Below are positions 46,980 through 61,467 of a DNA stretch of 64,000 bases, in pieces. The first letter of the stretch is position 1, and each line of letters opens with the position of its first letter. Below the pieces are notes generated by a model. That model made no database searches, was not told the DNA's origin, and saw only the letters and a list, made by a program, of their open reading frames with translations. The position numbers and the translations under genes were made by a program. Location: positions 206,130 through 270,129 of the forward strand of contig OY986966.1 in NCBI GenBank assembly GCA_963920575.1, in the 5' to 3' direction. The stretch is from Narthecium ossifragum (lineage: Eukaryota; Streptophyta; Magnoliopsida; Dioscoreales; Nartheciaceae).

Positions 46980-47051
46980 GTCGTTGTAGTATAGTGGTGA
47001 GTATTCCCGCCTGTCACGCGGGTGACCCGGGTTCGATCCCCGGCAACGGCG
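46980..47051 (+). tRNA. tRNA-Asp (anticodon GTC)
   Basis: This is a 72-nt cloverleaf. The acceptor strands GTCGTTG and CAACGGC pair with one G-T wobble and discriminator G. The anticodon loop CTGTCAC carries GTC at 47013-47015 between CCCGC and GCGGG stems. The T arm has GGTTCGATCCC. No intron and no encoded CCA, as usual for nuclear tRNA genes. Confidence 0.97.
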
Positions 47052-47564: not shown

Positions 47565-49592
47565 TCACCAGTAATCTCCACAAGAACAGTCCCCATGTCT
47601 AAAATGATGGAATCGACTAACATCTCTCACAACTATCTCCCGGTTTGTGATCTTCGAAATGAGCTTAATGGCAACATGGCAATCATCGCAGACTCGTAAA
47701 TTCTTCATGATCCGGATTGGAGCTCCCTCAGGCATGGTCAGGATTGCAAACGCTATCGCTAGCTTCTCACTGTGATATGCCAAACTACCTTCTTTCTCCT
47801 CATCCTCCATGTCATGGTACACTGTGCTGGTATCAGGGACATATCCACACTGTCTCAACTTGCTCAACAATTCTTTCAAGCACACATCGATGTCCCTCTG
47901 CCTCGGATGCAATCGATCTGCTGTCGAGAACTGATGCACCACGCCCTTCAGTTCCACCCAACTGATTCCAGGCTCCTTCCTCACCATCTTCTCCCTCATA
48001 GCCCTTCTAACATCAGAAACATCAGTCCATCTACGAGCAGAAGCACGAATGTTCGACAGCAAGACATAAGATGCTGAATCCTCTGGGTCCAATCGGAGAA
48101 CATGTTCTGCCACCCTCTCTGCCATCACCGCATTCTTATGGGTCTTACATGCTGACAGCAAAGTCTTCCATATGACAGCATCAGGTCTCACGGGCATCGA
48201 TTTGATCAGAGCTTCGGCTTCGTCCAGACAACCTGAACGCCCGAGTAGATCCACGACGCAAGTGTAATGCATCAATGTGGGCTCCATTCCATACTTCTGC
48301 TTCATCAGCTCCAGGAACTCCATCCCTTGATCTTTCAATCCACTGTGACAGCAAGCATATAGCAAGCTCAAGAATGTGACATCGCTTGGCTCTATTCCCT
48401 CTTGCACCATCTTCTCAAACAACCGAATGGCCTCCAGGCCATGCCCATGAAACCCATAACCCGCGATCATTGCGCTCCATAACACGAGGTCGGATCCTTC
48501 TGATTCAAAGAACACCCTCGCAGAGTCAGACAAGCAGCCACATTTGGAGTACATGCTTATGAGCGAACTCCTCACTGGCACCACGGAATCAACGCCTGCT
48601 TTGATTGCTTGGGCGTGCACCTGCTGGCCTTGGCCGAAGGCCCCCAAATCCGAGCATGAACTTACAACGCTTACAAAGGTGACCTCATCGGGCGCTATCC
48701 CTGCAGCTTTCATCAGGCTAAAATGGTCGACTGCCCCTTCGCCGTCTCCATTCTGAGCCCTTCCGGCAATAATGGTGTTGCACGACACGACATTGAGGAA
48801 TGGCAGTCCTTTTAATCCCTTCTCGCCTTCTGCGAGCGACCCACATTTCATGTACATGTGAGCCAGAGAGCTGCCGACACACATATCGAACCCGAATCCG
48901 GATAGAACGACATAGGCATGAATCTGGCGACCGGAGGCGATATCTTTCAGCCCGGCACAGCATCTCAGCGCGCTACCCAGCCCAAATTCATCTAGCCGGA
49001 AGCCTTCTCTCCTCATTCCCACCAAGAATTCCAAACCATCCTCGTTGCATCCGTGATGGGCCATGCCGGTGATCATGGCATTCCAAGTCGCTACATTTCT
49101 CTCTGGCGTTTGCTCGAAGAGCTTCCGGGCTTCCACGAGATGCCCGTGCTGGATAAATCCCCCGATGAGGATATTGGAGGACATAATGTTTCTCCTGGGC
49201 ATTGCTTGGAAGAGGGCGGCGGCCGACGGGAGGTCACCGAGCTTGGAATACATGTTGAGCAGGTGGTTGGCGGTAAAGCGGTCGGCGGCGGCACCGGAGG
49301 CAATGATGAAAGCATGAAGTTGGTGACCCTGCTGGAGGGAGTGGTGGGAGACGCATCCATTGAGGAGCTGGGAGAAGAGGTTGGGGTCCGACCAGAGGTC
49401 CGGGAGGAAGCCTCGCAGGGCTTGTCTCAGAGCGCCTTTGAAGCAGAGGGCGGCGAAGGTCTCTCTGGACGGGGATGTGTACGAGTACCGGTTAGAGATG
49501 ACCTTGGCGAGCATCTGGCTCGATTCGGTTCCTAGTTGGCGCAACCCGAAGGTTATTAAGCCAATTTGGGCCACCACAAGGCCCATAATCAT
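47565..49592 (-). CDS. PLS-class pentatricopeptide repeat protein with E and DYW domains (At2g41080-like)
   Basis: A single exon of 675 residues. Such proteins bind organelle transcripts and edit C to U. PPR motifs run from about residue 95 to 470 (NVATWNAMITGMAHHG, DLVLWSAMIAGYGFHG, PDEVTFVSVVSSC and similar). E-type motifs follow (LLGRSGCLDEAEALIKSMP, WKTLLSACK), then the DYW deaminase: GYVPDT, the zinc-site HSEKLAIAF, CDDCH and terminal HGDCSCGDYW. All deaminase signatures are intact, so an active editor is expected. The first ~40 residues could target mitochondria or plastid. A second ATG two codons in is an alternative start. It resembles the single-copy angiosperm gene At2g41080. Confidence 0.93.
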   Translation of the reverse strand: MIMGLVVAQIGLITFGLRQLGTESSQMLAKVISNRYSYTSPSRETFAALCFKGALRQALRGFLPDLWSDPNLFSQLLNGCVSHHSLQQGHQLHAFIIASGAAADRFTANHLLNMYSKLGDLPSAAALFQAMPRRNIMSSNILIGGFIQHGHLVEARKLFEQTPERNVATWNAMITGMAHHGCNEDGLEFLVGMRREGFRLDEFGLGSALRCCAGLKDIASGRQIHAYVVLSGFGFDMCVGSSLAHMYMKCGSLAEGEKGLKGLPFLNVVSCNTIIAGRAQNGDGEGAVDHFSLMKAAGIAPDEVTFVSVVSSCSDLGAFGQGQQVHAQAIKAGVDSVVPVRSSLISMYSKCGCLSDSARVFFESEGSDLVLWSAMIAGYGFHGHGLEAIRLFEKMVQEGIEPSDVTFLSLLYACCHSGLKDQGMEFLELMKQKYGMEPTLMHYTCVVDLLGRSGCLDEAEALIKSMPVRPDAVIWKTLLSACKTHKNAVMAERVAEHVLRLDPEDSASYVLLSNIRASARRWTDVSDVRRAMREKMVRKEPGISWVELKGVVHQFSTADRLHPRQRDIDVCLKELLSKLRQCGYVPDTSTVYHDMEDEEKEGSLAYHSEKLAIAFAILTMPEGAPIRIMKNLRVCDDCHVAIKLISKITNREIVVRDVSRFHHFRHGDCSCGDYW

Positions 49593-50284
49593 AAATATGA
49601 CAATTTTAACCAGTATTCAATATTCATGGGCTACAAAATTGATGCCGGTTGAGCTTCGAAAAAAGCTTTCAATTAGATTTCTTAAAATCTATTTACTTAA
49701 CCATTTGGCCGGCGGCTCCCCTAATAAAAATAAGAAATTAATAAAATTGGAATTAGATTTGAGTGCATCTATCATGGAGGTTGGTGCAAATTGATGATGT
49801 TTTCCATCCATGGTACAATTGAGTTGAACCATATTTTCCATCCATGGTAGTGATGCACCTTTATTAGTCAACTGGTTGAGACCAATTTGGGGTAGAGCCT
49901 AGTTACAGGTTTCCCATTTGGATAAAACTAACAGCAAATATATGGCTTTTTTATTTTATTACTTAAGCCCCAAGGCTGGAAATCAGGACAATAAGTTGGA
50001 ATTGCAAATATATGGTTGCATATAACACAGTAGTTATTGTAATTCCAACCGTTGGAAAACAACTTCAAGAGTTTTAGCTTCAATTTTAGTCACCCAAATA
50101 TAACAGACATTGATTAAAAAATCAGCACAATAAGTTGGAATTGGTGACTGGAGAAACTGCAACGAAATGGATGTGCAGAGGCTAGACTTCCAGGTGGCAA
50201 CAACATTCTACTGTACATCTTAGACGCTGAGATTGCGTTGGGTTTGCTCCAGCTGCCAAAAACAAGAAAAAAAAACAAGCAAGC
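49593..50284. other. Upstream of PPR gene and 3' flank of THIC
   Basis: No gene is seen. TTTTCCATCCATGGTA occurs twice (about 49800 and 49838). The THIC transcript may end in this region on the minus strand. Confidence 0.45.
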
Positions 50285-50400
50285 AGCACGCTCCCTGCGC
50301 AGGCATTATCCTGGTCAGGTTCAAAGGGTCTTTCTCAGCCTGCACAATGTCTTTCCCAACTGGTTGAAGCTGGAAAGACAGCGCAAGCACCCCTGATGCT
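50285..50400 (-). promoter_or_regulatory. Second (distal) TPP riboswitch aptamer
   Basis: Read on the minus strand this is a full eukaryotic TPP (THI-box) aptamer: CAGGGGTGC, a P3 hairpin with TGTCTTTCC pairing GGAAAGACA, GCAGGCTGAGA, CCCTTTGAACCTGA, AGGATAATGCC and TGCGCAGGGAG. The P1 strands AGCAT and GTGCT pair. P2 GCTTGC pairs GCAGGC. All the bases that contact the pyrimidine (CTGAGA) and the pyrophosphate (GCGCAGGGAG side) are conserved. It lies about 1.76 kb past the THIC stop codon and about 0.86 kb beyond the first aptamer. No other coding region for it to control is visible, so it appears to be a tandem THIC aptamer. Its activity is untested. Confidence 0.92.
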
Positions 50401-51263
50401 GGCTTTCATCAGCAATCGATCAAGCAAGTTATGAATTCTACTTCCAAATTTCTTCTCCAATATAGGATTTTTTTTTAAAAAACAGACAGTAATTGTTCCC
50501 TACAATGTAGATACAATTTAGAACAAGAAGCAACTAAACGCGCGAGGGATTCACTTTGGGGAAAATGGAAAAACAAAAGTTAAAATGAAAGGATGCAACT
50601 ACATTGCCAGATCTGGCATGCAGAAAAATGGCGCAATACACCAAGTAGCAAATTCAAAAGTTAGGCTGAATGAAGATGGGAGGGGAAAACCTGATTACCT
50701 TATAAAACCAGAAAGGTGGTCTGCAGCCAATTTTCAAACTCTATGGATTTGCTGGCTACTTCTAGCAAATCACTAAAGCAGCTAACTATGTTGGAAATTT
50801 TTTTCAGAAACCTCATTTCTTATTATCAACCATGAATACAAACGCTCAGTTGTTCAACAGCCTATCCCAGTCATTGTTACTTCCAGCTAAGTAAAATGCA
50901 ACTTGCCAAAACAAAACACTCATTGGTTCAAATATATATGTCACATATAAGGCGCCAGACCCAATTTTTGGAGAAAATTATTTAAAAATTGGACCATTTT
51001 TAGCAAGGAGTCCAAAAACCAAAAGAACATAAAAACCCTCCAGATATTAACAGCAGAATTCGGGACTGCAGATATAACTATCAGAAAGACGAAAGATATA
51101 AATCCAAACGGAGAAAATATAAGAAGGTGATATTTGGTTACTTCCCCCCAAGTTAGCAGTTTCGGCCAATTGTAAGAATAGAGGTATATGGCATGCATCT
51201 TCGAGCTGGAACCAGAATGCCGACTTCCCTGAGCAAGCACACAGAAACAAACGGCAAAATAAT

Positions 51264-51381
51264 TGCACGCTCCCTACGCAGGTATTATCCTGTTCAGGTT
51301 CAAAGGGACTATCTCAGCCAGTTCTGCCTCTATCCTGGCCAAAAGGCCTAGAAGCCAGCAGATACAGGCACCCCCGGTGCA
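51264..51381 (-). promoter_or_regulatory. First (proximal) TPP riboswitch aptamer of THIC
   Basis: The minus strand reads TTGCACCGGGGGTGCC, a P3 arm with a TAGGCC-TTTT-GGCCA hairpin tip, GGCTGAGATAG, CCCTTTGAACCTGA, AGGATAATACC and TGCGTAGGGAGCG, closing with GTGCAA. P1 is TTGCAC/GTGCAA. Plant THIC genes carry this aptamer in the 3' UTR, where TPP binding frees a 5' splice site upstream and causes an unstable long 3' end, lowering THIC expression. It lies about 780 bp after the stop codon and about 150 bp after the candidate regulated donor (51527). Confidence 0.95.
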
Positions 51382-51527
51382 ATTTCCCATCAAACAACAA
51401 GCCATACATAAAGGAACAAGATGTACAGTACTATTACCTTAATGTTCAAATGGCCAGAACAATATTGACCAAAGCAGAAGATGCTTAGATTATTTAAATA
51501 ACTACTTTATTACTCACCAAGGTTTGA

Positions 51528-51619: not shown

Positions 51620-51644
51620 CTGCAAAATGATCGAATGCAATCAT

Positions 51645-51779
51645 TTTTTTTTTCTTCCAAAGCTGAGCCAAGAGGCTAAGTGATACAAAGCACCTCAAAC
51701 TACATCAAACTACATCAAGCAGAGGTTGGAGGAGATGCCAACCCCGCTACCATAACCCCAAGGATCCCCTGTCTGGCCC
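51645..51779 (-). mobile_element. Short retroposon (SINE or truncated LINE) in the THIC 3'-UTR intron
   Basis: A 135-bp insert is flanked by identical 14-bp duplications TCGAATGCAATCAT (51631-51644 and 51780-51793). On the minus strand it ends in a poly-A run next to the duplication, the mark of target-primed reverse transcription. The body begins AGGGCCAGACAGGGG and near its end reads CTTAGCCTCTTGGCTCAGC. No pol III box pair is clear, so a 5'-truncated LINE tail is as likely as a SINE. Confidence 0.85.
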
Positions 51780-52156
51780 TCGAATGCAATCATACATAAA
51801 CAGAGAGCACAACATCATTATGGAATATAAAGCAGAAAGGAAAAACACACAAATCTTATGCCATTAGAGAATTTTTCCACTTTATCACTATCATGCCATG
51901 ATGTAAAGATGATTAGATAAAGAGTAGTAGCATCATCATTAAATGTCTTTACAGCAATATTGCAATGTGGGTCTATGTACCTATAAAGGAAGGCCTAGAA
52001 GTCTGGACTCAGATGTGGTCAAGTTTATGCATCATTTAAGTGACAACTAACAAAAATGTTTGATTTCATAAGTTGTTGCATTCTTTAGATAAAGAACTGT
52101 AAACTATCAAGCAACATAAAATTTAATGATTTGCAAATTAATGAGGAGGCTTACCT

Positions 52157-54540
<2,384 letters not shown>

Positions 54541-56093: not shown

Positions 56094-61178
<5,085 letters not shown>

Positions 61179-61467
61179 TTCGTTGCGGACCGCGGCAGAA
61201 TTCCTGAGAACCTTATGAATCTTTTGGGGGAAGAGTGGTCGGTCCAGGGATGTGGAACCAGAGACGGTGAGGGGGTCCAGAGTCCCGTCGAGGGATAGCC
61301 GGGAGGGAGAACCGGAGAACAGAGAACGAGGGAGGGATAAGAGCGTCGTGCGGCGGACCTGGTGGCCGTCCGATTTGGATATCGTGATCCGATAAACATC
61401 AGACGGCTGCAGGATCTCGATTCATGGATGAACGCTTGCCTGCGAAGTTATTGGCTCGCGTCACACC

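What the first reader, a model, noticed from the sequence alone, without database searches (positions are those of the whole stretch)
50285..51381. Two complete TPP riboswitch aptamers in tandem in the THIC 3' region
Plant THIC genes are described with one 3'-UTR TPP aptamer. Here two lie on the THIC strand, at 51264-51381 and 50285-50400, about 0.86 kb apart. Both keep CTGAGA, CCCTTTGAACCTGA, the AGGATAAT loop and the GGGAG segment. The distal copy is closer to the plant consensus (GCTTGC/GCAGGC P2, nine-pair P3 hairpin, TGCGCAGGGAG). P3 loops and flanks differ, so this is not a recent copy-paste, and both cores seem to have been kept by selection. Tandem aptamers could steepen the TPP response, or the distal one could act on a second splice or poly-A choice in the long transcript.
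Basis: partly seen in the sequence, partly recalled or inferred. Interest (0 to 1): 0.88.

Follow-up and report, generated by a model that had tools for sequence, protein, structure and literature searches.

The report
Two vitamin-B1 sensors in one gene
The one THIC gene found in this monocot plant genome, a gene for making vitamin B1, is followed by two complete sequence matches to the RNA motif that senses vitamin B1, where one is usually described; the two likely act together on one splicing choice, which would make the plant's feedback on vitamin B1 sharper.

Summary
Two RF00059 (TPP) matches above Rfam's cut-off lie on the THIC strand: A, 51385-51253 (68.3 bits), and B, 50404-50274 (62.4; cut-off 54.3). 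They are the only TPP hits found in the 379-Mb genome, beside the only THIC gene found. Their 57-nt cores share 51 bases; P3 and most flanking sequence do not align significantly; P1 differs yet pairs in both. Both look old and maintained.

The copies are not equivalent. In Arabidopsis the regulated 3'-UTR intron ends inside the aptamer, after nucleotide 7 (or 1). B keeps an AG at both places; A has lost both. A sits 135 nt behind a GTGAGT donor that has AATAAA just inside the intron. B lies 1.1 kb from that donor and carries the stems published for oil palm.

Best reading: a division of labour over one long regulated intron (predicted 51517-50393), A inside it, B at its end. No RNA data were available. 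Pairing of the aptamer with the donor, part of the Arabidopsis model, was tested and not found, and better-looking acceptors exist (51230, 50254). I found no tandem TPP riboswitch of a land plant in the papers I could search. New variant of a known kind.

The parts
52157..54504 (-). THIC coding region, four exons (54504-54191, 54100-53973, 53809-52983, 52831-52157), 647 aa
   Evidence: Open frame after joining exons at GC/GT..AG borders; 79-86% identity over nearly the full length to many plant THIC proteins; only PF01964 matches found in the genome
51620..52154 (-). Predicted first 3'-UTR intron, donor right after the stop codon (AAG|GTAAGC), acceptor TTTTGCAG
   Evidence: Sequence; acceptor ranks 1 of 117 AGs by a rough matrix; an intron right after the stop is reported for most plants analysed (PMC5853225)
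51516..51517 (-). Candidate donor of the regulated 3'-UTR intron (CCTTG|GTGAGTAA)
   Evidence: Sequence scan; not tested with RNA
51506..51511 (-). AATAAA poly(A)-signal motif just inside the predicted regulated intron
   Evidence: Motif scan
51263..51382 (-). Proximal TPP aptamer A (P1 51382-51377/51268-51263; P2 51375-51372/51307-51304; P4 51298-51295/51276-51273; P5 51292-51289/51282-51279). The two acceptor places read TG (51381-51380) and GG (51375-51374)
   Evidence: RF00059 68.3 bits; 18 of 18 pairs standard in my layout; acceptor letters seen in the sequence
50284..50401 (-). Distal TPP aptamer B (P1 50401-50396/50289-50284; P2 50394-50391/50328-50325; P4 50319-50316/50297-50294; P5 50313-50310/50303-50300). 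AG at both acceptor places (50400-50399 and 50394-50393)
   Evidence: RF00059 62.4 bits; 18 of 18 pairs standard in my layout; acceptor letters seen in the sequence
50393..51517 (-). Predicted regulated intron (1,125 nt) holding AATAAA and all of A and ending inside B
   Evidence: Inference from the parts above; T 0.37, like the first 3'-UTR intron
51229..51230 (-). Rival acceptor 33 nt after A (CTTGCTCAG)
   Evidence: Rank 5 of 117 AGs; one of 8 pyrimidine-rich acceptors in the stretch
50253..50254 (-). Rival acceptor 30 nt after B (TTTTTGGCAG)
   Evidence: Rank 4 of 117 AGs; one of 8 pyrimidine-rich acceptors in the stretch
49860..49960 (-). Three AATAAA motifs (49960, 49955, 49865), the first of that form after 51511; candidate ends of long transcripts
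   Evidence: Motif scan; weaker variants (AATAAT, AAGAAA) do occur between the aptamers

Best explanation
The only THIC gene found in this monocot genome is followed on its strand by two complete TPP-aptamer sequences 0.86 kb apart, and these likely gate one long regulated 3'-UTR intron together, with the proximal copy A predicted to lie inside the intron beside its 5' splice site and poly(A) signal, and the distal copy B predicted to supply its splice acceptor. Shown by sequence: both copies are complete by Rfam's model; a GTGAGT donor with AATAAA directly behind it lies 135 nt upstream of A; A has no AG at either place where the Arabidopsis aptamer is reported to be spliced, and B has AG at both; no AATAAA lies between the copies. 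Inferred: at low TPP the intron is kept and the RNA is cut and polyadenylated after AATAAA (short, stable mRNA). At high TPP both aptamers fold, donor and acceptor become usable, and splicing from 51517 to 50393 or nearby would remove the poly(A) signal and all of A, giving long, unstable RNA. Two binding events acting on one splicing decision would make the response to TPP steeper than with one aptamer. The likely history is a duplication of the aptamer in which B kept the ancestral acceptor role, as its palm-like stems suggest, while A lost its acceptors and became an intronic sensor.
For: Two RF00059 matches over the cut-off, the only ones found in the genome. Core 51/57 identical while blastn sees no similarity outside the aptamer better than E 0.85. 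P1 differs at 3 of 6 pairs, 2 of them on both sides, yet all 6 pair in each copy; duplex energy -10.2 and -9.9 kcal/mol for the own strands, -5.9 and -4.8 across copies. Arabidopsis splicing removes the first seven, or only the first, aptamer nucleotides (PMC9264592, passages; PMC5853225): B keeps AG at both places, A at neither. The A-to-G change at aptamer nt 6 in A leaves its P2 pair as G-U. Stop-intron-exon-GTGAGT-AATAAA order as in the known gene. B carries the oil-palm stems CAGC, AGGGG, GCUUGC (PMC7390266). No AATAAA between the copies, three 324-419 nt after B.
Against: No RNA evidence. Pairing of the P4-P5 side of A or B with donor 51517 is no better than background: 99% (A) and 61% (B) of comparable sites do at least as well (65% and 80% with the whole aptamers). 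In the fold that includes the whole exon the donor pairs with its own exon whether or not A is formed. B's acceptor 50394-50393 has a poor pyrimidine tract and ranks 19 of 117 AGs (score 0.95; the three THIC coding acceptors 1.17, 4.14, 4.01); its other acceptor, 50400, ranks 53; 51230 and 50254 rank 5 and 4 (rough matrix, recalled). A's flank shows no special anti-aptamer pairing (100 of 200 shuffles as strong).
Confidence: 0.4

Rival explanations
1. Two riboswitch units in series. A controls a short intron (51517 to 51229, acceptor just 3' of A) that holds the first poly(A) signal; B controls a second intron further down the long transcript (for example donor 50698 to 50393 or 50253). Each makes its own decision, as in bacterial tandem TPP riboswitches.
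For: A pyrimidine-rich acceptor follows each aptamer by 30-33 nt, while only 13% of positions have one within 40 nt; ranks 5 and 4 of 117 AGs. A donor-like ATAAG|GTAATC lies at 50698. The oil-palm aptamer is reported to lie within an intron (PMC7390266).
Against: No AATAAA lies between A and B, so the second unit would lack the usual poly(A) choice. Donor 50698 has no special pairing with either aptamer. The 3' flanks are not recognisably homologous (p 0.21).
Confidence: 0.27
2. Only one copy regulates. Most likely B is the working ancestral switch and A is an older duplicate that still folds but has lost its role (or the reverse, A working by a new acceptor and B left over).
For: A has lost both acceptors. 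The expected pairing with the donor was not found for A or B. Two doubly changed P1 pairs could be kept by chance about once in seven (my estimate).
Against: All parts of both cores are intact and 51 of 57 core bases agree while the surroundings do not align; A has the higher Rfam score. A copy without a role would be expected to decay like its flanks.
Confidence: 0.23
3. Leftover of a removed THIC duplicate, or an assembly fault, with no function as a pair.
For: Gene duplication followed by deletion could leave a lone 3' aptamer.
Against: THIC tblastn finds nothing near B; no second THIC gene was found; no duplicated flank is seen. The 1.2-kb stretch with both copies was found once in the genome, and the copies differ too much for a repeated haplotype.
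Confidence: 0.05

Closest known systems
Plant THIC 3'-UTR TPP riboswitch (Arabidopsis transcript types I/II/III; Wachter 2007 and Bocobza 2007, known here through other papers)
   Same: Same aptamer class, same gene, same strand and 3' position; intron right after the stop codon; donor with a poly(A) signal in front of the aptamer; B keeps both in-aptamer acceptors.
   Different: Two aptamers instead of one; the proximal one has lost both acceptors; predicted regulated intron of 1.1 kb; no clear pairing of the aptamers with the donor.
Tandem TPP riboswitches of bacteria (213 representatives in PMC9481103, passages; Bacillus anthracis tenA, passages of PMC12121620)
   Same: Two complete aptamers of one class on one gene; a steeper, pseudo-cooperative response would be expected.
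   Different: The tenA pair lies upstream of the gene and acts by transcription termination; here splicing and 3' processing downstream of the gene are predicted.
Two TPP aptamers in 5'-UTR introns of Saprolegnia NMT1 (oomycete; PMC5882874, passages)
   Same: A eukaryotic gene of vitamin-B1 synthesis with two TPP aptamers in introns.
   Different: Other gene, 5' UTR, similar copies that cluster together; its authors could not infer a mechanism.
Cassava MeTHIC1 and MeTHIC2 (PMC5853225, passages and section 24)
   Same: Two THIC aptamers in one plant genome.
   Different: Two genes with one aptamer each; here one gene with two.

Membership tests
TPP riboswitch aptamer (RF00059) | Covariance-model score above the curated cut-off | tested here: met
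   A 68.3 and B 62.4 bits against 54.3
TPP riboswitch aptamer (RF00059) | P1, P2, P4, P5 helices | tested here: met
   18 of 18 pairs standard in each copy in my layout; Rfam's layout marks one inner P1 pair in each copy and one P3 pair in A as non-standard
TPP riboswitch aptamer (RF00059) | Binds TPP | not testable with these tools
   Needs in-line probing or calorimetry
Plant THIC 3'-UTR riboswitch | Lies 3' of THIC on its strand, after an intron that follows the stop codon | tested here: met
   the intron is predicted from sequence
Plant THIC 3'-UTR riboswitch | Donor with a poly(A) signal inside the intron, upstream of the aptamer | tested here: met
   GTGAGT 51517 and AATAAA 51511, 135 and 129 nt before A, about 1.1 kb before B; sequence only
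Plant THIC 3'-UTR riboswitch, copy A | Splice acceptor AG after aptamer nt 7 or nt 1 | tested here: not met
   GG at 51375-51374 and TG at 51381-51380; places taken from PMC9264592, register of the Arabidopsis aptamer recalled
Plant THIC 3'-UTR riboswitch, copy B | Splice acceptor AG after aptamer nt 7 or nt 1 | tested here: met
   AG at 50394-50393 and at 50400-50399
Plant THIC 3'-UTR riboswitch | TPP-free aptamer pairs with the donor | tested here: not met
   No better than background for donor 51517 with A or B
Plant THIC 3'-UTR riboswitch | TPP-dependent splicing and 3' processing | not testable with these tools
   No RNA data on hand
Tandem (pseudo-cooperative) riboswitches | Two complete aptamers for one ligand at one gene | tested here: met
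   By sequence; whether both are on one RNA is untested
Tandem (pseudo-cooperative) riboswitches | Each aptamer has its own expression platform | tested here: inconclusive
   A candidate acceptor follows each copy, but no AATAAA and no donor with special pairing was found for B alone

The most novel reading that the evidence does not exclude
The first natural tandem riboswitch of a land plant: two TPP aptamers that have divided the labour of one ancestral switch, the proximal one a pure intronic sensor beside the donor and poly(A) site, the distal one a ligand-gated splice acceptor, so that one 1.1-kb intron is spliced only when both are bound: an AND gate in pre-mRNA splicing.
Probability: 0.33. 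Interest if true: 0.82.

Novelty: new variant of a known kind. Interest (0 to 1): 0.62.

Why it matters
In the papers I saw, THIC genes of flowering plants are described with one TPP aptamer each. A maintained pair whose copies differ exactly in the splice acceptor is a natural experiment: it can show whether control of the donor and control of the acceptor by the THIC aptamer are separable. It would also be a eukaryotic test of whether tandem aptamers sharpen a splicing response, and a part for plant synthetic biology, where TPP riboswitches are reported to lower RNA by up to five-fold (PMC12371167, passages).

Tried and rejected
Donor masking: the P4-P5 side of A or B pairs with donors 51517, 51437 and 50698 no better than background. 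The post-stop donor 52154 had the strongest pairing with A's P4-P5 side (-24.2 kcal/mol; 0.1% of comparable sites do as well; 3.9% for B), but this fell to 8% (A) and 5% (B) against the whole aptamers, and the fold of the 951-nt stretch 52200-51250 gave it a mean pairing of 0.01 with A. I do not use it.

Anti-aptamer fold: freely folded, A's 3' half pairs with upstream sequence, but shuffled flanks do as well (100 of 200 with the short flank, 115 of 200 with the long one). For B the figures are 6 of 200 and 62 of 200: not robust.

Larger duplication unit: no blastn similarity beyond the aptamers better than E 0.85. Shuffle tests gave p 0.21 (3' flank, 60 nt), 0.23 (5' flank, 60 nt), 0.035 (5' flank, 30 nt) and 0.09 (P3); at most about 30 nt upstream were copied too.

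Species: the THIC tree (38 of 120 listed hits plus the window; no Dioscorea or palm among the named rows) put the window beside grasses at 95/80. The tree of the neighbouring PPR gene (26 of 120 listed hits plus the window) put it beside Dioscorea at 96/94. I say only monocot, perhaps near Dioscoreales.

Relatives: I had no collection of plant genomes to search, so whether other monocots have copy A is not tested. Literature: eight searches showed no tandem TPP riboswitch of a plant in their listings (one search listed 30 of 76 papers), nor did the passages I read of 11 papers. The library lacks most subscription papers; Wachter 2007 is not held, and Bocobza 2007 was not looked up.

Full report
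What is there. The window lies in a genome of 379,400,290 bases in 150 contigs, a monocot by the protein trees of THIC (beside grasses, 95/80) and of the neighbouring PPR gene (beside Dioscorea, 96/94). On the minus strand it holds THIC (54504-52157, four coding exons, 647 aa), the only THIC locus found in that genome (two PF01964 matches, both exons of this gene). Downstream on the same strand lie two full-length RF00059 matches: A at 51385-51253 (68.3 bits) and B at 50404-50274 (62.4 bits), gathering score 54.3. A permissive scan finds no further copy nearby, and the genome search finds no other TPP match (49 of 13,294 candidates scored). The 1.2-kb stretch with both copies was found once in the genome.

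Both copies look maintained. In the layout that I laid on each copy, 18 of 18 pairs of P1, P2, P4 and P5 are standard; Rfam's own layout marks one inner P1 pair in each copy and one P3 pair in A as non-standard. The 57-nt core is 51/57 identical, whereas blastn sees nothing outside the aptamer better than E 0.85 (the aptamer itself: 120 bp, 72.5%, E 5.5e-15). Shuffle tests on P3 and flanks gave p 0.09, 0.21 and 0.23, and 0.035 for the 30 nt just upstream. P1 differs at three of six pairs, two of them on both sides. Each P1 pairs fully with its own partner (-10.2 and -9.9 kcal/mol) and less well across copies (5 of 6 and 4 of 6 pairs; -5.9 and -4.8 kcal/mol). Chance could keep two doubly changed pairs about once in seven (my estimate), so P1 is supporting evidence and no proof. 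The stronger point is that the whole conserved core is intact in both while the surroundings do not align.

How the known switch works. In Arabidopsis a second 3'-UTR intron is regulated. At low TPP the aptamer interacts with its donor, the intron is kept and a poly(A) site within it is used. [quoted passage not shown] PMC10226581; PMC7200797; PMC5853225).

Mapping this onto the window. The stop codon is followed at once by a donor (AAG|GTAAGC, 52154); the acceptor TTTTGCAG at 51621-51620 ranks 1 of 117 AGs. Next come CCTTG|GTGAGT at 51517 and AATAAA at 51511, then A from 51382: the usual layout, with A 135 nt behind the donor. But at the two acceptor places A reads TG and GG, so it cannot be spliced there. 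The change at aptamer nt 6 (A to G) keeps its P2 pair as G-U, so the aptamer is spared while the acceptor is lost. B reads CCAG|CATCAG|GGG, with AG at both places. (That the Arabidopsis aptamer starts GCACCAG is recalled; the papers give only the numbers of nucleotides removed.) B also carries the stems printed for oil palm (P1 CAGC, P2 AGGGG, P3 GCUUGC; PMC7390266, outline, parts 2 and 3 of 6 and passages read), which suggests that B is the ancestral copy and A the changed one. Between the copies there is no AATAAA, only weaker variants (AATAAT 50982, AAGAAA 50821 and 50454); three AATAAA lie 324-419 nt after B, so an RNA that escapes the first signal is predicted to include B.

Best reading. 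One regulated intron, predicted 51517-50393 (1,125 nt), contains the poly(A) signal and A and ends in B. TPP binding to both would favour splicing, and two binding events on one decision would steepen the response. This is inference: no RNA was available. Confidence 0.4.

Results against it. Pairing of A or B with donor 51517 is no better than background (99% and 61% of comparable sites do as well on the P4-P5 side; 65% and 80% with the whole aptamers). In the fold that includes the whole exon, the donor pairs with its own exon whether or not A is formed. A's flank has no unusual anti-aptamer pairing (100 of 200 shuffles as strong). B's in-aptamer acceptor is mediocre (rank 19 of 117 by a rough, recalled matrix; score 0.95, against 1.17, 4.14 and 4.01 for the three THIC coding acceptors; the other B acceptor ranks 53), and better-looking acceptors lie just 3' of A (51230, rank 5) and of B (50254, rank 4). 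These two are among only 8 pyrimidine-rich acceptors in 2.45 kb, where 13% of positions have one within 40 nt. They favour a rival with two units in series, each aptamer wholly intronic (0.27); oil palm's aptamer is also reported to lie in an intron. That only one copy works is a further rival (0.23).

What is known. Two TPP aptamers at one gene are known in bacteria (213 tandem representatives in PMC9481103, passages; Bacillus anthracis tenA, PMC12121620, passages) and in the oomycete Saprolegnia (NMT1, two aptamers in 5'-UTR introns, mechanism not inferred; PMC5882874, passages). For land plants, eight searches and the passages I read showed one aptamer per THIC gene; cassava has two THIC genes with one each. 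The library is partial and Wachter 2007 is not held, so this is no proof of novelty.

Verdict. A real, structurally complete tandem pair with an asymmetry in its splice acceptors that I did not find described: a new variant of a known kind. One long-read RNA experiment would decide between the readings.

Noticed in passing
51631-51793 (-): A 135-nt insert ending in a poly(A)-like run (AAGAAAAAAAAA) lies between two copies of the 14-mer ATGATTGCATTCGA (51793-51780 and 51644-51631), inside the intron after the THIC stop codon: it looks like a SINE-type retroinsertion with target-site duplication close to the intron's acceptor. Its repeat status in the genome could not be searched.
   Followed up: partly
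54190 (-): The first THIC coding intron has a GC-AG border (GCATGA donor).
   Followed up: no
52146-52169 (-): The stretch over the stop codon and the post-stop donor has the strongest predicted pairing with the P4-P5 side of aptamer A of all sites scanned (-24.2 kcal/mol), but not convincingly against the whole aptamer.
   Followed up: partly
47565-49616 (-): An uninterrupted PPR-DYW open frame (683 aa, At2g41080 type) begins about 0.67 kb after aptamer B on the same strand, which bounds how far long THIC transcripts could run before the next gene.
   Followed up: partly
46980-47051 (+): A tRNA gene (60.3 bits); its anticodon reads GTC, so probably tRNA-Asp.
   Followed up: no
56106-61421 (-): Upstream of THIC on the same strand lie exons that read like a chloroplast FtsH-type protease (recognised by eye from the frames; not searched).
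   Followed up: no
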